A stretch of DNA of 64,000 bases, taken from assembly GCF_003863355.1 (NCBI RefSeq), contig NZ_QQWG01000021.1:1-64000 (forward strand), given 5' to 3'. The notes under the pieces were generated by a model. That model saw only the letters and a list, made by a program, of their open reading frames with translations. It ran no database searches and was not told the origin of the DNA. The translations under genes were made by a program, and so were the position numbers. Source of the stretch: Ancylomarina euxina. GTDB lineage: Bacteria > Bacteroidota > Bacteroidia > Bacteroidales > Marinifilaceae. This document shows, piece by piece, positions 28,365 through 60,611 of the stretch. Each line of letters begins with the position of its first letter. Within the stretch, counting starts at the first letter, position 1.

Positions 28365-28488
28365 AAAAAGAAAAAACTCAGGTCCCCACCTGAGTTTTCT
28401 TACTAACCTAAATCTAACCTATGAAAAAATTGACCAAGCTCTTTTGGAGTTGAGCTTAGAACTAACTTTGGATTGTTAGTTTGTTTCA
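28365..28488 (-). ncRNA. Candidate small RNA, copy 1
   Basis: On the minus strand a TACATTTG box (28495-28502) matching the Bacteroidota -7 consensus would start a transcript near 28488. The following ~120 bases can fold into ctaac/gttag, aagctc/gagctt and a perfect 11-bp aaaactcaggt/acctgagtttt hairpin (28373-28398) followed by TTTTTTCTTTTTT, an intrinsic terminator. Between the second and third hairpin an unpaired ttcataggttag segment is conserved in all copies. On the plus strand the same DNA has only a ten-codon ORF (MKKLTKLFWS) and a poorer T-run, so I favour a minus-strand RNA. Transcription has not been shown. Confidence 0.5.
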
Positions 28489-28644
28489 ACACTACAAATG
28501 TAGAGCTTTCTTTAGTTAAGGGGAGTCAACACAAGTTAAAGAACGTTAAGCTTTCTTTTTATGGCGGTTTTTGAAATGATGGTCCAGATATTTAAAACCA
28601 GATTCAATAAATGATGTATGGAGTAGAGTTAATCTGAGATTCTT

Positions 28645-28770
28645 ATAAAAAGAAAAAACTCAGGTCCCCACCTGAGTTTTCTTACTAACCTAAATCTAAC
28701 CTATGAAAAAATTGACTAAGCTCTTTTGGAGTTGAGCTTAGAACTAACTTTGGATTGTTAGTTTGTTTCA
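28645..28770 (-). ncRNA. Candidate small RNA, copy 2
   Basis: This copy is nearly identical to copy 1: TACATTTG box at 28777-28784, the same three hairpins, terminator stem at 28655-28680 and the same unpaired ttcataggttag. Differences are single bases mostly in loops and upstream spacer. No other coding capacity is visible. Confidence 0.5.
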
Positions 28771-28904
28771 ACATTACAAATGTAGTGCTTTCTTTAGTTA
28801 ATGGGAGTCAACACAAGTTAAAGAACGTTAAGCTTCTGTTTTTATGGAATTGTGATAGAATAGACAGTGGATGTCGGTTGGAATTAGGTTGGTGAGAAGT
28901 TCCT

Positions 28905-29028
28905 ATAAAAGAAAAAACTCAGGTCCCCACCTGAGTTTTCTTACTAACCTAAATCTAACCTATGAAAACGACTAAACTCATGTGATTCAGAGTTTAGAAT
29001 TGATCTTAGAAATCAATTTTGTTTTTAA
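28905..29028 (-). ncRNA. Candidate small RNA, copy 3 (diverged)
   Basis: The promoter-like box is TATGTTTG (29035-29042), still TAnnTTTG, with a TTTG 21 bases upstream on the same strand. The first two stems have changed sequence but keep pairing: attgat/atcaat instead of ctaac/gttag, and taaactc/gagttta instead of aagctc/gagctt. The terminator hairpin (28914-28939) and the ttttcataggttagatttagg segment are unchanged. Retained pairing despite changed bases supports a structured RNA. Confidence 0.5.
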
Positions 29029-29214
29029 CTACTACAAACATACAGCTTTAATCTTTTTTGAAACAAAAAACTAAGTTAAAGAAGGTTAAAAGCATGTGAA
29101 TTGAATGAATTATAACTGCCTTAAAACCAGTATGATTTGATATTGTATGTTAGACTGAATGTTCTGAAAAGCCTCGTTTTACTAGTGAAAAGGAGTTGTG
29201 TTTTACGCAGAGGT

Positions 29215-29556
29215 CTATGGTTTTCTAAAGGTTCCCACTCCTGTTATAATAGCTTTAGCCATTTTTTCCTCTTCGCTACCATCTGATTGTGATAAGTGAT
29301 ACATGGAGTGGATAACAACACCTAAGTCATCAACTTCAACACGCCCTGTCCAACAAGCGATTGAACCATATTGACCAAAATCAACCATGAAAGCAATGAC
29401 GTTGTCTTTAAGACGTCCAATAATTTCAAATTTTTCTTCAAAATTTGGAAGTCCTATTCCAGTTTGGAAAGTTCCTGTGATGTTCTGACCATCAATACTT
29501 AAATTCATTTCAGAATTATACTGATTTCGCCAGCGTCCGTTTAAATTTATGTTCAT
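29215..29556 (-). CDS. Avidin/streptavidin-like beta-barrel protein
   Basis: The 113-residue protein aligns by eye to the avidin family along its length: GRWRNQYNSEMNLSIDG for the GTWYNQLGS strand, GTFQTGIG for GTYESAVG, a CWTGRV strand for TWSGQY, and ITGVGTFRK for VGHDTFTK at the end. Avidins bind biotin in an eight-stranded barrel. Several ligand residues are changed: the last-strand Asp of streptavidin (D128) is Gly here, and the dimer-lid Trp of NTQWLLTSG is replaced in SMYHLSQSDG. Biotin affinity may therefore be low or the ligand different. There is no signal peptide. Its start region (cctaacctATGAA) is complementary to the conserved segment of the small-RNA-like repeats next door. Confidence 0.72.
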   Translation of the reverse strand: MNINLNGRWRNQYNSEMNLSIDGQNITGTFQTGIGLPNFEEKFEIIGRLKDNVIAFMVDFGQYGSIACWTGRVEVDDLGVVIHSMYHLSQSDGSEEEKMAKAIITGVGTFRKP

Positions 29557-29852
29557 AGGTTAGGTTTTTTATATCAGAAACATTTCTTAGAAAGCCTTGT
29601 TCCTTGATGATGTAAGTAAATAGAACGAATATTTTAAATTAATATAGTCGAAATAAGTGATTTTTACAAGATTTCTAGACTTTGAAAATATGTTTTTTTG
29701 GAATTCATGTTATCTTTGCGAATTCGAATATTGGTATTGATCTGCTGATTGAAAGATTGGAGTGACTAATTTTGAATTATTTTAATTTCATGCGGAACTA
29801 AAATGAACTAGTTGAGACTATCAATTTTATTTCCCGAACAAAGAATTTCCAA

Positions 29853-34739: not shown

Positions 34740-37700
34740 ATGAAAAAATTAATTGGACTATTTGTCTTTCTACTTATAGTAGGGACCCAAATAGTGACTG
34801 CGCAAAGCAAGCAAATTACCGGTACGGTAACCAGTGCTGACGACGGGCTCGGAATGCCTGGTGTATCTGTTGTTCTTAAAGGTACGACTATAGGTGCGAG
34901 TACTGATATTGACGGGAAATATTCCTTAGAAGCTAAGGCTTCAGATGTTTTGATCTTTAGTTTCGTCGGTATGGTAACCAAGGAGATTAAAGTTGGGGAA
35001 CAAACTGTGATTAACATGGTTCTTGAAACTGAATCTATAGGTATGGATGAAGTTGTTGTTACTGCATTAGGTATTACTAGAGAGAAAAAATCACTGGGTT
35101 ATGCTTCTCAGGCAGTAACTAGTGAAGAAGTTACAGCTGTTAAGACGGATAACGTTGTGAATGCACTGTCTGGAAAAGTAGCTGGTGTACAAATTAAAAG
35201 AAATACAAATATGGGTGGATCTACAAACATCCTTATTCGTGGTAATACATCTTTAACTGGTGATAACCAAGCTCTATTTGTTGTTGATGGTGTTCCAATG
35301 AGTAACGCTAACTTAAATGGATCTAGTCAGCAAACAGCAAGAGGTGGATACGACTATGGTAATTTCGCTTCGGATATCAACGCTGATGACGTTGAGTCAA
35401 TTAACGTACTAAAAGGTGCTGCCGCTACTGCTCTTTATGGTTCTAGAGCTGCAAATGGTGCCATTATTATTACAACTAAAAAAGGTTCTAAAGGGAATAA
35501 AGTAGAGATTACAGTGAATTCAGGTATTACTATAGGTTCTATCGATAAGTCTACCTTCCCAGAATACCAAAAACAGTATGGATCAGGTTATGGTCCTTAT
35601 TACGGAAGTACAGGGGATTTTGATGAAGCCGATGTTGACGGTGACGGAACTGTTGATTTAATTGTTCCTCTTACTGAAGATGCTTCTTTTGGTGGTAAAT
35701 TTGATCCAAACTTGAACGTATTTCATTGGAATTCTTTAGATCCTGCATCTGAACATTATTTAAAAAAACGTCCTTGGGTTGCCGCTAAGAATGGTCCAAT
35801 TGAGTTTTTTGAAACACCGGTTTCTTATTCGAATAACGTTTCTATGTCTGGAAGTACTGATACAGGGAACTATCGTTTTTCTTATACCAACTTTCAACAA
35901 AATGGTTTAATGCCTAATAGTGATTTGGAAAGAAATACATTCGCATTAAATGCTTCGAGCAAACTTACAGATAAGTTAACCGTTTCAGCAGGTGCAAACT
36001 ATGTTTTAACTGATGCTAAAGGTCGTAACGAAACAGGTTATAGCGATAACATGGTTTCTTCATTCAGACAATGGTGGCAAACTAACGTAGATGTTAAGGA
36101 GTTAGAAAATATCTACCATAAGACAAAAAGAAATGTAACTTGGAATCCATCATCATATGATGATCCTTCTCCAATATATTGGGATAATCCATATTGGGCT
36201 CGTTATGAGAATTATGAAACTGATACTAGAAATCGTTTCTTTGGTAATATGGCTTTGAACTATAAAATTAATGATTGGTTAACTGCTGAAGGAAAGGTTT
36301 CTGTAGATACTTATTCTTATATACAAGAAGAGAGAATCAATAATGGAAGTAATCCTGTATCTAAATACACTCGTTACGAAGCTGATTTTACAGAAAAGAA
36401 TTACGATTTCATGTTATCTTTTAACAAAGATTTAACAGAGAGAATTAATTTAAATGGAGTTGTAGGTGTAAACAAAAGACGTACTTCTTTCAGATCTATT
36501 TATGCTGAAACAAATGGGGGGTTAATTGTTGATCGTTTATTTGCTATTTCTAACTCACAAAGTGTTCCATTGGCACCAACTGAAAGAGCCACTGAAATTG
36601 GAGTTGATGGTATTTATGGGATGGCCTCTTTTGGTTATGACAAAACGTTTTTTGTTGACGTAACCGCCAGACAGGATCACTCTTCAACATTACCATCAAA
36701 CGAGAGTAAGTTTTTTTACCCATCTGTTGCAACTAGTATGATTTTCTCTGAATTTGTAGATGTTAGCTGGTTATCATTTGGTAAAATTCGCGCTAACTAT
36801 GCAGAAGTAGGAAGTAGTGCTGATTTTGCAAGAATTAGTGATGTTTTAACTAAACCATCTCCTTTTGGCTCAACACATATCTATTCTATAAATAGTACTA
36901 AGAACAATCCAAACTTAAAGCCTGAAAGAACAAAAAGTATTGAAGCTGGTTTGGAGATGCACTTTTTTAACAAGCGTTTTGGGTTTGATTTCTCTTGGTA
37001 CAAAACAAATTCTGAAGACCAAATTATGCCTGTTTCTATATCTAGAGCAAGTGGTTACTCTTCAAAGTATGTTAATGCTGGTGAAATAGAGAACAGAGGT
37101 GTAGAACTTACATTATTCGCAACTCCTGTTAAGACTAAGGATTTTCAGTGGGATGTAAATGTAAACTTTGCGAAAAATAAAAACGAAGTTATCTCATTAT
37201 TTGAGGATGTTAAGAATCTACAGTTAGGGTCTTTCCAGGGGGGTATTACTATTAATGCTACTATTGGTGAATCTTATGGTACAATTCAAGGATCTGATTT
37301 TGTTTATACAGATGGTCAACGTACGATCACTTCTTCAGGTTACTATATGAAGTCAAGTACGACCGATAATGTTATTGGTAATATGAATCCAGACTGGAAT
37401 GGTGGTATCAGCAATAAATTAAGATACAAGAATTTTAATCTTAGTTTCTTGATTGATATACAAAAAGGTGGTGATATTTTCTCTCTTGATACATGGTATG
37501 GTAATGCTACAGGTCTATATGCAAATAGTGTTGGTAAAAATGCTAGAGGTATTGAAAGACGTGAGACATTAGCTAATGGTGGTGGTGTTCTTTTCAACGG
37601 TGTACAAGCCGATGGTTCTAAGAATACTGTTTATGGACGAGGTGACTATTATGGCAATGGTTCTGGTTATGCTAGAGCTCCTAATGCTTTACATATATAC

Positions 37701-37946
37701 GATGCTTCTTATATCAAATTAAGAGAGGTTGCTTTCTCTTACACTCTTCCTTCTAATTTATTAAAGAACACATTTATTAGCTCAGCACAAGTAAGTGTTG
37801 TTGGGTCTAACCTATGGATTATTCACAAGAATCTACCTTATGCTGACCCTGAAGCAGGTTTAAGTTCAGGAAATTTACAAGGTTACCAAAGTGGAGTAAT
37901 GCCTACAACTCGTGACATAGGAGTTAATGTGAAAATTAAATTTTAA
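34740..37946 (+). CDS. SusC/RagA-family TonB-dependent outer-membrane transporter
   Basis: The 1068-residue protein imports a ligand handed over by the SusD lipoprotein, driven by TonB. A signal peptide (LIGLFVFLLIVGTQIVTAQ) precedes a carboxypeptidase-D-like regulatory domain (ITGTVTSADDGLGMPGVSV, residues ~26-105). The TonB box MDEVVVTALG follows near 108. The plug domain (~115-235) contains GVQIKRNTNMGGSTNILIRG, ALFVVDGVPM and AATALYGSRAANGAIIITTKKG. The rest is a 22-strand beta barrel ending VKIKF. It is followed 12 bases later by susD. No glycosidase, peptidase, or sigma/anti-sigma gene is adjacent, so the substrate is unknown. Confidence 0.95.
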   Translation: MKKLIGLFVFLLIVGTQIVTAQSKQITGTVTSADDGLGMPGVSVVLKGTTIGASTDIDGKYSLEAKASDVLIFSFVGMVTKEIKVGEQTVINMVLETESIGMDEVVVTALGITREKKSLGYASQAVTSEEVTAVKTDNVVNALSGKVAGVQIKRNTNMGGSTNILIRGNTSLTGDNQALFVVDGVPMSNANLNGSSQQTARGGYDYGNFASDINADDVESINVLKGAAATALYGSRAANGAIIITTKKGSKGNKVEITVNSGITIGSIDKSTFPEYQKQYGSGYGPYYGSTGDFDEADVDGDGTVDLIVPLTEDASFGGKFDPNLNVFHWNSLDPASEHYLKKRPWVAAKNGPIEFFETPVSYSNNVSMSGSTDTGNYRFSYTNFQQNGLMPNSDLERNTFALNASSKLTDKLTVSAGANYVLTDAKGRNETGYSDNMVSSFRQWWQTNVDVKELENIYHKTKRNVTWNPSSYDDPSPIYWDNPYWARYENYETDTRNRFFGNMALNYKINDWLTAEGKVSVDTYSYIQEERINNGSNPVSKYTRYEADFTEKNYDFMLSFNKDLTERINLNGVVGVNKRRTSFRSIYAETNGGLIVDRLFAISNSQSVPLAPTERATEIGVDGIYGMASFGYDKTFFVDVTARQDHSSTLPSNESKFFYPSVATSMIFSEFVDVSWLSFGKIRANYAEVGSSADFARISDVLTKPSPFGSTHIYSINSTKNNPNLKPERTKSIEAGLEMHFFNKRFGFDFSWYKTNSEDQIMPVSISRASGYSSKYVNAGEIENRGVELTLFATPVKTKDFQWDVNVNFAKNKNEVISLFEDVKNLQLGSFQGGITINATIGESYGTIQGSDFVYTDGQRTITSSGYYMKSSTTDNVIGNMNPDWNGGISNKLRYKNFNLSFLIDIQKGGDIFSLDTWYGNATGLYANSVGKNARGIERRETLANGGGVLFNGVQADGSKNTVYGRGDYYGNGSGYARAPNALHIYDASYIKLREVAFSYTLPSNLLKNTFISSAQVSVVGSNLWIIHKNLPYADPEAGLSSGNLQGYQSGVMPTTRDIGVNVKIKF

Positions 37947-37958
37947 TAATAGACGATT

Positions 37959-39410
37959 ATGAAAAGAATATCAATTATATTATTAACTCTATTTTTAGCA
38001 TACTCTTGTACTGACAATCTAGAGGATCGAAATGTAGATACAAAGAATGCGGCCACGGCTGCAGGAGAGACCTTTTTTACAGGTGCTCAGAAGAACTTGA
38101 CTGACGACATGGCTAGTATTAACGTTAATACAAATGTTTGGAGACAATTTGTTCAGCAAATTACTTCAACAACGTATAACGATGAAGCCAACTATAATAT
38201 TGCAAATAGAAAAGTGCCAGATGGTTTATGGGCAACTATGTACCGTGATGTACTTAATGATTTAGCTGAAAGTGAGCGAATTATTAAAGAGGCACCTGCT
38301 GCACCGGTTGGAATTGGAGGTACTAATGTTCAAAAGAATCAATTAGCAATGATTGAGGTGATGAATGTTTATGCCTATGCTATATTAGTTGAAACATTTG
38401 GCGATATTCCTTATACAGAAGCCTTAGATATAACTAATGTTTTACCAAAATATGATGATGGTCAGACTGTTTATGCAGATCTAATTGCTCGCTTGTCGGC
38501 TGCTATTGCTAATATGGATGTAGCAGAAGATAGTTTCGGTGGTGCAGATCTTATTTATGGTGGAGATGTTGCTCTATGGAAAAAATTTGCAAATTCATTT
38601 AAATTGAGAATGGGTCTTGTAATGTACGATGTAGATGCAACTCTAGGTACAGCAACAGTGCAAGAAGCTATTGCTTCGGGTGTATTTGCTTCTAATTTAG
38701 ATAATGCTACGTTTGAGTACCTGGATGCAACACCAAATACTAACCCAATGTGGGAAGATTTAGTGCAAAGTGGTCGTAAAGACTTTATTGTTGCAAAACC
38801 TTTTGTTGATGTATTGAATACTTTAAATGATCCAAGACGTACTGTTTATTTTGATGATAATATTGAGGATGGTTATGTTGGTGCTGTTTACGGGCTAAAT
38901 AGTAGCTATGGAGATTTTTCTCATATTGGGGGTATTTTCTATGAAGCGACATTACCGCACGTACTTTTGGACTATGCAAATGTTGAGTTTATGATGGCAG
39001 AGGCAGCTGAGCTTTCTTTAGTTGGTACTCCTGCTGATGCTGCTGCTCATTATGATGAGGCAATTACGGCTTCTTTTGATTACTATGAAGTTGCTGATGT
39101 TGCTACTTATCTTGCTCAGCCAAGTGTTGCCTATGCTACTGCTACTGGTACTTGGAAAGAGAAGATCGGAACTCAAAAGTGGATTTCTTTGTATAACCAA
39201 GGATTTTTAGCATGGACTGAATTCAGAAGATTAGATTATCCAGCTTTAGTTGCTCCGGATACAGCTGACGATGCTGCTGAAGGCTTTGTTCCAAGAAGAT
39301 TCACTTATCCAATTGGAGAGCAAACATTAAATGGTGATAATTATACAACTGCAGCTGCTGCTGTTGGTGGTGATAAATTAAGCACTAAACTATTCTGGGA
39401 TAAATTCTAA
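37959..39410 (+). CDS. SusD/RagB-family outer-membrane lipoprotein
   Basis: This 483-residue protein is the surface lid of the SusC barrel and binds the nutrient. The lipobox LAYSC puts the lipidated Cys at residue 17. The NVNTNVWRQFVQQITSTTYNDEANY start and the YADLIARLSAAIANMD and WISLYNQGFLAWTEFRRLDYP blocks place it with the SusD-like_2 subgroup (tetratricopeptide-like helices) rather than with classical SusD. That subgroup often lacks linked glycosidases and is associated with peptide or other non-glycan substrates. It is co-transcribed with susC and ends before a hairpin. Confidence 0.92.
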   Translation: MKRISIILLTLFLAYSCTDNLEDRNVDTKNAATAAGETFFTGAQKNLTDDMASINVNTNVWRQFVQQITSTTYNDEANYNIANRKVPDGLWATMYRDVLNDLAESERIIKEAPAAPVGIGGTNVQKNQLAMIEVMNVYAYAILVETFGDIPYTEALDITNVLPKYDDGQTVYADLIARLSAAIANMDVAEDSFGGADLIYGGDVALWKKFANSFKLRMGLVMYDVDATLGTATVQEAIASGVFASNLDNATFEYLDATPNTNPMWEDLVQSGRKDFIVAKPFVDVLNTLNDPRRTVYFDDNIEDGYVGAVYGLNSSYGDFSHIGGIFYEATLPHVLLDYANVEFMMAEAAELSLVGTPADAAAHYDEAITASFDYYEVADVATYLAQPSVAYATATGTWKEKIGTQKWISLYNQGFLAWTEFRRLDYPALVAPDTADDAAEGFVPRRFTYPIGEQTLNGDNYTTAAAAVGGDKLSTKLFWDKF

Positions 39411-47141: not shown

Positions 47142-47235
47142 AATGATTAGCTATATTCTAATTAAGAATTGACTTCATTCAATGAGAATGATCATTTTGT
47201 TTTTTTTTTATAAATATTGCATAGCTTTGCAGTTA

Positions 47236-47416
47236 ATTAGGTTTCCTAAAAAGGAATTAAAAGGGAATCCGGTTTAATGCCGGAGCTGTTCCCGCAGCTG
47301 TATGTCCTATTCGTTAAGTCGAATTGTATGTTCAAACGATAGAGCCACTATTTACTTCTCATGAATTTGAGGGAAATGGGAAGGCGTTTGAATGGATAAG
47401 CCAGAAGACCTGCCTT
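47236..47416 (+). promoter_or_regulatory. Cobalamin (B12) riboswitch
   Basis: Conserved blocks of the adenosylcobalamin aptamer are clear: AAAAGGGAATCCGGT at 47260-47274, the B12 box-type GCCGGAGCTGTTCCCGCAGC around 47280-47298, GCCACT at 47344-47349, GGGAAGGC at 47378-47385 and AGCCAGAAGACCTGCC at 47399-47414. The P1 helix can form between ttaggt (about 47238) and acctgcctta. It lies about 95 bases before the B12-type binding-protein gene. High B12 should switch the importer off. Confidence 0.95.
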
Positions 47417-47480
47417 AAGATATTTATATTCGTAACTTCGGGAGTTGAGTAACGAGATTATGGCTGTTTGCTTATATCTT
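47417..47480 (+). promoter_or_regulatory. Possible expression platform of the B12 riboswitch
   Basis: aagatat (47417-47423) can pair with atatctt (47474-47480), enclosing an inner hairpin aact-tcgg-agtt type element near 47432-47446. The second arm lies about 30 bases before the ATG, so a translation-level switch is possible. There is no T-run, so this is not an obvious terminator. Confidence 0.4.
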
Positions 47481-59818: not shown

Positions 59819-60552
59819 TTAATGCGATGATTTTTGCAGCAGGTCTTGGAACCAGACTGCAACATTACACCAAGAATTGTCCTAAAGCATTAGTTAGCTT
59901 GGATGGAAAACCTTTGTTGGAACATTGTATTTTAAAGCTTAAAGCTTTTGGTGTAGATCGAATCGTGATTAATGTGCACCATTACGCAGATCAAATAGAA
60001 GCTTTTCTAAAATTGAAAGATAATTTTGGAATGGATATTTTGATTTCTGATGAAAGAGAGCTTTTGTTGGATACTGGAGGAGCCATTAAAAAAGCAAAGT
60101 CTCTTTTCATTCCCAATGCTCCCATCTTAATTTATAATGTAGATATTTTGAGTTCATTAAACTTAGAGGATCTTCTAGAAGCTCATGAAAGCAAACAGGC
60201 TTTGGCGACTTTGAATCTAAGAGCCAAGAATACCAATAGACATTTGTGCTTTAATCAGCAAGGTTTGTTGTGTGCCTGGAAGAATGATGCCACTCAAGAA
60301 GTGAAAAATGTGAATGAAAGTCATCTTAATTCTAGTGCTTATAGTTTCTCAGGAATTCATGTTATTGATTCTAGCCTATTGGATTTGATTGAAGAAGAAG
60401 GTGTTTTTTCTATCATCGATTTGTATCTGCGTCTGGCAAAAGATTATCCTATTGCTGGATATTATGATGACTCCGATGTCTGGATGGATCTTGGAAAACC
60501 TGAAGAATTATTAAAGGCAGAGACCATTCTTAAAAAATTAAGTAAGGATTAG
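59815..60552 (+). CDS. MurU-like sugar-1-phosphate nucleotidyltransferase
   Basis: The 245-residue enzyme opens with INAMIFAAGLGTRLQHYTKNCPKAL, the GxGTRL-x-P-K nucleotide-binding signature of NTP transferases. Next come LLEHCILKLKAFGVDRIVINVHHYADQI, a TGGAIKKAK segment and the VDILSSLNL metal site. Short NTases of this type next to a kinase of the AmgK class are MurU, which converts MurNAc-alpha-1-phosphate to UDP-MurNAc and so bypasses de novo MurA/MurB. Mannose-1-phosphate guanylyltransferase-like activity is the alternative. It overlaps the Cys-rich mini-gene by four bases. Confidence 0.82.
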   Translation: MINAMIFAAGLGTRLQHYTKNCPKALVSLDGKPLLEHCILKLKAFGVDRIVINVHHYADQIEAFLKLKDNFGMDILISDERELLLDTGGAIKKAKSLFIPNAPILIYNVDILSSLNLEDLLEAHESKQALATLNLRAKNTNRHLCFNQQGLLCAWKNDATQEVKNVNESHLNSSAYSFSGIHVIDSSLLDLIEEEGVFSIIDLYLRLAKDYPIAGYYDDSDVWMDLGKPEELLKAETILKKLSKD

Positions 60553-60575
60553 TCATTTGATTTAGATTAGGTATA

Positions 60576-60609
60576 AAAAAAAATCCATTCTTAAGAATGG
60601 ATTTTTTTT
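60576..60609. terminator. Bidirectional terminator
   Basis: aaatccattctt and aagaatggattt form a 12-bp perfect palindrome with A-run on the left and eight T on the right. It lies between convergent genes. Confidence 0.88.
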
Positions 60610-60611
60610 GT

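What the first reader, a model, noticed from the sequence alone, without database searches (positions are those of the whole stretch)
28365..29042. Triplicated candidate small RNA with preserved hairpins
Three repeat units each have a TAnnTTTG box on the minus strand, two internal hairpins, a conserved unpaired segment, and a perfect 11-bp terminator hairpin with T-run. In copy 3 both internal stems changed sequence but still pair, which indicates selection on RNA structure. The conserved linker and terminator have not changed at all. I do not recognise the family. Tandem sRNA copies often act as a redundant or dosage-tuned regulator.
Basis: partly seen in the sequence, partly recalled or inferred. 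Interest (0 to 1): 0.75.

Follow-up and report, generated by a model that had tools for sequence, protein, structure and literature searches.

The report
Tandem sRNAs aimed at SusC transporters
Three side-by-side copies of a small RNA gene in a marine Ancylomarina bacterium belong to a multicopy family, found again in related genera, whose conserved segment is antisense to the start sites of many sugar-transporter (SusC) messages, so they probably turn down glycan uptake much as FopS RNAs do in gut Bacteroides.

Summary
On the minus strand lie three tandem units, each with a -7 box, two 5' hairpins, a conserved ~30-nt segment and a strong terminator; a fourth copy sits beside two tRNA-Asp genes on another contig. 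The RNA recurs in 25 of 56 genomes of its family (5 of 5 of the genus), often in tandem; hairpins and terminator covary. The conserved segment matches the R1' seed of Bacteroides FopS sRNAs: the four copies are the genome's best FopS hits (E 0.0035-0.034) but score below Rfam's cut-off (at best 34.8 against 56 bits); a model of this family recovers FopS in 30 of 30 loci tried. The seed is complementary to translation starts of the genome's 27 susC genes (median -17.2 against -10.7 kcal/mol for 336 control genes, p 4e-9), only in the window spanning the start codon; Marinifilum flexuosum shows the same. Best reading: a FopS-like sister family repressing SusC translation. Differences make it a new variant: a covarying two-hairpin arm (Ancylomarina), a promoter with TTAAC repeats every 10 bp, and no RRM-domain protein (the RbpB class) in 12 of 12 genomes tested. 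Nothing here shows expression or regulation directly.

The parts
28365..28490 (-). sRNA copy 1 (about 125 nt; 5' end inferred from the -7 box)
28495..28549 (-). copy 1 promoter: four TTRAC half-sites every 10 bp, then -7 box TACATTTG (28495-28502)
28460..28481 (-). copy 1 hairpin 1
28434..28459 (-). copy 1 hairpin 2
28399..28429 (-). copy 1 seed segment TTTTTTCATAGGTTAGATTTAGGTTAGTAAG, unpaired in the MFE fold
28371..28400 (-). copy 1 intrinsic terminator
28647..28772 (-). sRNA copy 2 (5' end inferred)
28777..28831 (-). copy 2 promoter: four TTRAC half-sites every 10 bp, then -7 box TACATTTG (28777-28784)
28742..28763 (-). copy 2 hairpin 1
28716..28741 (-). copy 2 hairpin 2
28681..28711 (-). 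copy 2 seed segment, unpaired in the MFE fold
28653..28682 (-). copy 2 intrinsic terminator
28907..29030 (-). sRNA copy 3 (5' end inferred)
29035..29042 (-). copy 3 -7 box TATGTTTG
29073..29089 (-). copy 3: the two distal TTAAC half-sites (the two nearer ones are not there)
28998..29018 (-). copy 3 hairpin 1, compensated stem (arm folded alone)
28972..28997 (-). copy 3 hairpin 2, compensated stem
28940..28968 (-). copy 3 seed segment (partly paired in the full-length MFE fold)
28912..28941 (-). copy 3 intrinsic terminator
34740..37946 (+). susC gene in the window; its start region is a predicted target (-17.7 kcal/mol); a susD-like gene follows at 37959-39410 (named from its place and sequence, not searched)
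29215..29556 (-). neighbouring avidin-family gene; start region has a 12-nt perfect complement to the seed (29552-29563), not conserved in three relatives

Best explanation
The three units are tandem genes of a multicopy trans-acting sRNA, a FopS-like sister family in Marinifilaceae. Each is made from its own promoter, probably switched on by a dedicated DNA-binding activator that reads TTAAC half-sites on one face of the helix, and ends at its own terminator. The 5' hairpins probably protect the RNA or present the seed. The seed (UUUUUUCAUAGGUUAGAUUUAGGUUAGUAAG) pairs across the start codon and 5' leader of many susC mRNAs and blocks ribosome entry, lowering SusC glycan transporters together. 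Several copies give dose. Shown here by computation: the gene anatomy, structure, conservation, promoter element, seed-susC complementarity, no RRM protein found. Inferred: transcription, pairing in the cell, repression, the activator, dosage.
For: Family in 25 of 56 genomes of the same GTDB family, 8 of 17 genera, 5 of 5 of the genus. Terminator stem: both-side changes at 8 of 8 pairs over 32 cores; Ancylomarina copies 12 of 26 pairs. FopS model: the four copies rank 1-4 in the genome, E 0.0035-0.034; this family's model R2 hits the FopS site in 30 of 30 loci (the best-scoring ones), E 6e-5 to 0.026. Seed against susC starts: 27 susC median -17.2, 336 controls -10.7, p 4.4e-9; against 37 controls that also begin ATGAAA p 1.5e-4; upstream part only p 4.2e-4, and 0.015 against the ATGAAA controls; hairpin part of the same RNA p 0.17. 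Of 12 windows along the genes only -45..+30 shows the dip, in both species. 15 of 27 susC pass the 5% control threshold. M. flexuosum: 29 susC against 256 controls, p 1.5e-9. In B. thetaiotaomicron FopS pairs at susC starts and blocks translation (PMC11697453; abstract and sections 8, 12, 13, 14 read).
Against: No expression data. FopS score below Rfam's gathering cut-off (34.8 against 56 bits). 12 of 27 susC do not pass the 5% threshold. susC genes are paralogues with alike start regions, so p-values overstate independence. Duplex energies ignore accessibility, and the seed is partly paired in the MFE folds of copies 3 and 4. Some other genes score as well, up to -20.2. RbpB, the partner in Bacteroides, has no RRM homologue here. 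31 of 56 genomes of the same GTDB family gave no hit.
Confidence: 0.7

Rival explanations
1. Local control: the array regulates the neighbouring avidin-family gene (29215-29556), whose start site has a 12-nt perfect complement to the seed.
For: CTAACCTATG occurs 8 times in the genome: 4 in sRNA copies, and 2 of the other 4 at start codons, the avidin gene and a gene resembling glycoside hydrolase family 17 (the GH17 name is recalled from the sequence, not searched). Avidin has the longest complement run (12) of 336 control genes. The gene stays next to the sRNAs in three relatives.
Against: In the three relatives the start region reads CCTGCCCTATG or CCTGCCATATG, so the complement is lost while the seed is kept. 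The GH17 start differs in 6 of 6 relatives looked at, with partial likeness in two. Other copies and arrays lie elsewhere.
Confidence: 0.08
2. Protein sponge: the repeated AGGUUAG motifs titrate an RNA-binding protein, and the susC relation reflects shared start-site composition.
For: AGGUUAG occurs twice in the seed of this genome's copies, and many seeds of other genera add UAGUGGUUAG. FopS RNAs bind RbpB (PMC11697453).
Against: The signal is complementarity to susC starts, confined to the start-codon window and lost with 60 and 40 shuffled seeds. No RRM protein found in the genome. Other RNA-binding proteins were not searched.
Confidence: 0.08
3. Convergence: the RNAs are not related to FopS by descent; both families were selected to match the same kind of susC start.
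For: The shared signal lies mostly in the seed and the score is below the Rfam cut-off. 5' arms, upstream elements and copy layout differ.
Against: Shared order seed-spacer-terminator, closely alike seeds, reciprocal model recovery in 30 of 30 loci, and FopS above cut-off in 55 of 295 genomes of the order, in at least 17 family labels among the matches listed. The Bacteroides seed fits local susC starts less well than the local seed (p 0.003 against 4e-9), so targets alone need not dictate it.
Confidence: 0.15
4. Repeat debris or a mobile element with hairpins, without function.
For: Tandem units, two of them nearly identical.
Against: Compensatory changes, conserved seed among diverged arms, recurrence across genera, promoter and terminator per unit.
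Confidence: 0.02

Closest known systems
FopS sRNAs (Rfam RF04319), Bacteroides thetaiotaomicron
   Same: Multicopy; TAnnTTTG promoter; seed UUUUUCAU-G-UUAGAUUU-AGGUUA; seed followed by an intrinsic terminator; complementarity to susC translation starts.
   Different: Scores 30-35 bits against a cut-off of 56. Seed is internal, behind two hairpins in Ancylomarina or a short leader in other genera, not 5'-terminal. Often in tandem arrays. TTAAC-repeat promoter. No RRM protein in the 12 genomes tested.
GibS sRNA (BTnc035), B. thetaiotaomicron
   Same: Carries the R1 seed and pairs at translation starts (passages of PMC7366714; PMC11697453).
   Different: 145 nt, a second seed R2, another promoter (PM2); its two known targets are not susC.
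BTnc231 sRNA (Rfam RF04180)
   Same: Weak model hits in the relatives (31.1 bits at best, cut-off 80.4).
   Different: Far below cut-off; a separate sRNA whose function I did not look up.
Multicopy sRNAs such as LhrC1-7 or OmrA/B (named in the discussion of PMC11697453)
   Same: Paralogous copies that share a seed (recalled).
   Different: Other phyla, unrelated in sequence, other partner proteins (recalled, not compared here).

Membership tests
FopS (RF04319) | Score at or above Rfam gathering cut-off (56 bits) | tested here: not met
   34.8, 33.6, 33.4 and 29.7 bits; best hits of the genome, E 0.0035-0.034
FopS (RF04319) | R1' seed in a predicted single-stranded stretch | tested here: inconclusive
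   Seed aligned to the model; unpaired in the MFE folds of copies 1 and 2, partly paired in copies 3 and 4
FopS (RF04319) | Seed at the 5' end of a 65-70-nt RNA | tested here: not met
   Seed starts 64-67 nt after the -7 box in 12 Ancylomarina copies and 21-30 nt after it in 13 copies of other genera
FopS (RF04319) | Intrinsic terminator after the seed | tested here: met
FopS (RF04319) | Multicopy family | tested here: met
   4 clear copies here; up to 13 matches in a genome
FopS (RF04319) | Complementarity to susC translation starts | tested here: met
FopS (RF04319) | Association with and antagonism by the RRM-1 protein RbpB | tested here: not met
   Only the presence of an RRM_1 protein was tested: none in 12 of 12 genomes of the same GTDB family; present in 11 of 14 FopS genomes
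FopS (RF04319) | Represses SusC translation | not testable with these tools
   needs an experiment
GibS | Second seed R2 and PM2 promoter | not tested
   R2 and PM2 sequences were not retrieved

The most novel reading that the evidence does not exclude
Antisense control of SusC transporters by multicopy sRNAs is older and wider than the Bacteroidaceae FopS-RbpB circuit: the Marinifilaceae run an RRM-free branch, driven by its own regulator through TTAAC repeats, kept in tandem arrays for dose, with seeds that co-evolve with the local susC starts. In Ancylomarina an ancestral seed decayed into a hairpin loop ((U)UUUCAU still shown in 9 of 19 loops, at the place where other genera have their seed) while a second full seed took over downstream.
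Probability: 0.4. Interest if true: 0.72.

Novelty: new variant of a known kind. Interest (0 to 1): 0.6.

Why it matters
SusCD systems are the main glycan uptake route of Bacteroidota, marine ones included, and post-transcriptional control of them outside Bacteroides is, as far as I recall, hardly studied. If right, one sRNA family sets many SusC transporters at once in Marinifilaceae without the RRM protein thought central in Bacteroides, which makes it testable whether RbpB is an add-on to an older RNA-only mechanism. It also gives a family, a covariance model and a ranked list of susC targets to test.

Tried and rejected
Rfam at curated cut-offs gave only a cobalamin riboswitch at 47222-47431. 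The other low-scoring Rfam hits in the region (bglG-cis-reg, DLEU2_2 and more) and in relatives (MicC 35.6 bits against 90) I took for chance. I first took BTnc231 to be GibS from memory; the 2020 paper shows GibS is BTnc035, so I dropped that link. The avidin and GH17-like start-site matches looked like the targets at first; both fail or weaken in relatives. The exact seed pattern has 0 matches in viral contigs. A 28-bit FopS match on contig C13 and a 28-bit R2 match at 60547-60610 were only read.

Selection and dropped rows. Cores for model R2 were found by requiring TTTTCAT and trimmed at TTTTCATAG, so that stretch is invariant by construction; one match (L105:1556-1667, with CGTAG) was dropped for lacking it; 32 of 57 distinct cores were aligned. 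In one search I gave 45 of the 87 matches (several of those 87 are weak and on the opposite strand); a -7 box was required there and all 45 passed; the TTAA columns were not required. One search had the window's own susC among its 337 controls; it was removed. One search used 24 rows from 23 of the 30 FopS loci. The automatic stem count gave 13 of 19 because a 2-bp cap inside hairpin 2 breaks the stem in 6; the dot-brackets show two hairpins in 19 of 19 arms folded alone. A first count of an upstream palindrome in FopS genes used too short a spacer (8 of 24); with six bases it is 15 of 24. In M. flexuosum the ATGAAA and upstream-only tests gave p 1.2e-6 and 5.8e-5.

Full report
What is there. 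On the minus strand of 28365-29042 lie three tandem units. Each has a Bacteroidota-type -7 box (TACATTTG, TACATTTG, TATGTTTG), two hairpins, a conserved stretch of about 30 nt and a terminator; all three terminators found in the region are on the minus strand. A search of the 4.40-Mb genome finds a fourth copy at C15:84594-84785, next to two tRNA-Asp genes, and a diverged fifth candidate at C36:285329-285443 with 38 bits (30 bits, E 0.024 with the core model).

Where it occurs. The exact seed pattern matched 21 stretches in the collection of 84,980 named species genomes, all titled Ancylomarina, Marinifilum, Labilibaculum or 'Marinifilaceae bacterium'; Ancylomarina is in Marinifilaceae. G001-G004 are listed as the same genus as the window, which is therefore from an Ancylomarina species (inference). 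A covariance model of the four copies (R1) hits 25 of 56 genomes of the same GTDB family at E <= 0.01, in 8 of 17 genera and 5 of 5 of the genus, with up to 13 matches per genome; the match list of that call was capped. Of the 20 stretches I fetched, chosen mostly where matches cluster, 17 hold two or more copies, in many cases 180-220 nt apart. 31 of 56 genomes had no match.

Structure. Over 20 Ancylomarina copies 12 of 26 pairs show changes on both sides, against a mean of 5.6 in shuffles, 0 of 500 reaching it; this alignment was fitted to the structure. On an unfitted MAFFT alignment of 19 copies RNAalifold gives hairpin 2 with 5 of 7 pairs compensated, but not hairpin 1. Over 32 core sequences the terminator stem has both-side changes in 8 of 8 pairs. 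The two-hairpin arm was seen only in Ancylomarina; most other copies read have a short leader, and one (L103) a single short hairpin. Seed and terminator are what the genera share. In the full-length MFE folds the seed is free in copies 1 and 2 and partly paired in copies 3 and 4.

Kinship with FopS. Rfam RF04319, the 14-member FopS family of B. thetaiotaomicron, gives the four copies the four best scores of the genome (34.8, 33.6, 33.4, 29.7 bits; E 0.0035 to 0.034), all below the curated cut-off of 56. In the reverse direction, model R2, built only from cores of this GTDB family, finds the FopS site in 30 of 30 loci, the best-scoring ones of a FopS search of the order (E 6e-5 to 0.026). FopS reaches its cut-off in 55 of 295 genomes drawn from the order, in at least 17 family labels among the matches listed, wider than the Bacteroidaceae discussed in the 2025 paper (PMC11697453; abstract and sections 8, 12, 13 and 14 read, passages of others). 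I conclude a FopS-like sister family, not a formal member. Descent rather than convergence is likely but not proved, since most shared signal is in the seed.

What the seed pairs with. The reverse complement of the seed reads like a translation start (CTTACTAACCTAAATCTAACCTATGAAAAAA). I compared it with starts of the genome's 27 susC genes over the TIGR04056 cut-off and with 336 genes of at least 100 codons from the window and a 400-kb sample; start codons are the most upstream ATG, not curated. Median duplex energy is -17.2 against -10.7 kcal/mol (p 4.4e-9); against 37 controls that also begin ATGAAA p is 1.5e-4; with only the upstream part p is 4.2e-4, or 0.015 against the ATGAAA controls; 40 shuffled seeds give a mean difference of 0.46 (sd 0.83) against -6.5; the hairpin part of the same RNA gives p 0.17. 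Of 12 windows of 75 nt along the genes only the one from -45 to +30 shows the effect. 15 of 27 susC lie below the 5% control threshold. In M. flexuosum, with its own seed, 29 susC against 256 controls give p 1.5e-9 and one susC reaches -34.8 kcal/mol. The Bacteroides seed does less well on both genomes (p 0.003 and 0.02), as expected if seeds follow local targets. susC genes are paralogues, so these p-values overstate independent evidence.

Promoter. Counting from the -7 box, 45 chosen copies from several genera share TTA at -47 (44 to 45 of 45 per column), TTAAC at -37 (42 to 45), TT at -27 with A at -24 (38 to 43) and TTAAC at -17 (37 to 42): a 10-bp period. The full element plus -7 box, with up to 3 mismatches, occurs in this genome only at copies 1, 2 and 4, and 0 times for the reversed control pattern; copy 3 keeps the two distal repeats. 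FopS genes show TTAA-N6-TTAA in 1 of 24 rows and instead TGT-N6-ACA in 15 of 24. This suggests a dedicated activator; which one is unknown.

RbpB. RRM_1 (PF00076) has no match in this genome (99.99% complete) nor in 11 other genomes of the same GTDB family that carry the RNA, while 11 of 14 FopS genomes have it, one of them only in a long open frame. So the RbpB part of the Bacteroides circuit seems absent here; three FopS genomes also lack it. Other chaperones were not searched.

A possible origin of the 5' arm. In 9 of 19 Ancylomarina copies the loop of hairpin 1 shows (U)UUUCAU inside UUUUUUCAUAA(U/A)UAG, close to the seed itself. It starts 18-20 nt after the -7 box, where 12 of the 13 copies of other genera that I measured have the U-run of their seed at 19-23 nt (30 in the other, L103). 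It may be an old seed turned into a hairpin loop. This is inference.

Print. Papers holding FopS, Bacteroides and sRNA: 2, of which I read parts of one. Marinifilaceae with sRNA: 0 papers. For Ancylomarina with small RNA the ten papers listed first hold only the second term, so by the tool's ranking none holds both. In a broader search (1,259 papers, 10 listed) only the FopS paper was to the point; of 75 papers for GibS (12 listed) I read passages of one. Only open-licence PMC papers are searched.

Not shown. No transcript, no binding and no regulation has been seen; accessibility was not modelled; taxonomy rests on named relatives.

Noticed in passing
29215-29556 (-): Avidin-family gene (Pfam PF01382, E 4.4e-13) next to the array; conserved beside it in three relatives at 93-95% identity.
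   Followed up: partly
47222-47431 (+): Cobalamin riboswitch, 92.5 bits.
   Followed up: no
G000:C36:285329-285443 (L005), also G001:C1:303734, G003:C12:487936 and perhaps G002:C213:9494: A diverged relative with GGTTAG motifs and, in L005, the same GGTGGGGACC terminator loop; 35-39 bits with R1.
   Followed up: partly
upstream of FopS genes, L206-L235: A TGT-N6-ACA palindrome such as TGTTTTATAACA in 15 of 24 rows, possibly the site of the unknown FopS regulator; some matches lie further upstream and may be chance.
   Followed up: partly
L239-L242: Exact FopS seed in four IMG/VR viral contigs, in line with the phage-borne FopS of the 2025 paper.
   Followed up: no
L209 and L234: FopS copies also occur in tandem: three R2 matches each within about 1.2 kb.
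   Followed up: no
window 60547-60610 (+): R2 match, 28.3 bits, E 0.049: ATTTAGATTAGG followed by a terminator; may be chance or an sRNA from a gene end.
   Followed up: partly
G000:C47:220963-223972 (L013): Gene resembling GH17 with CTAACCTATG at its start codon, differing in 6 of 6 relatives.
   Followed up: partly
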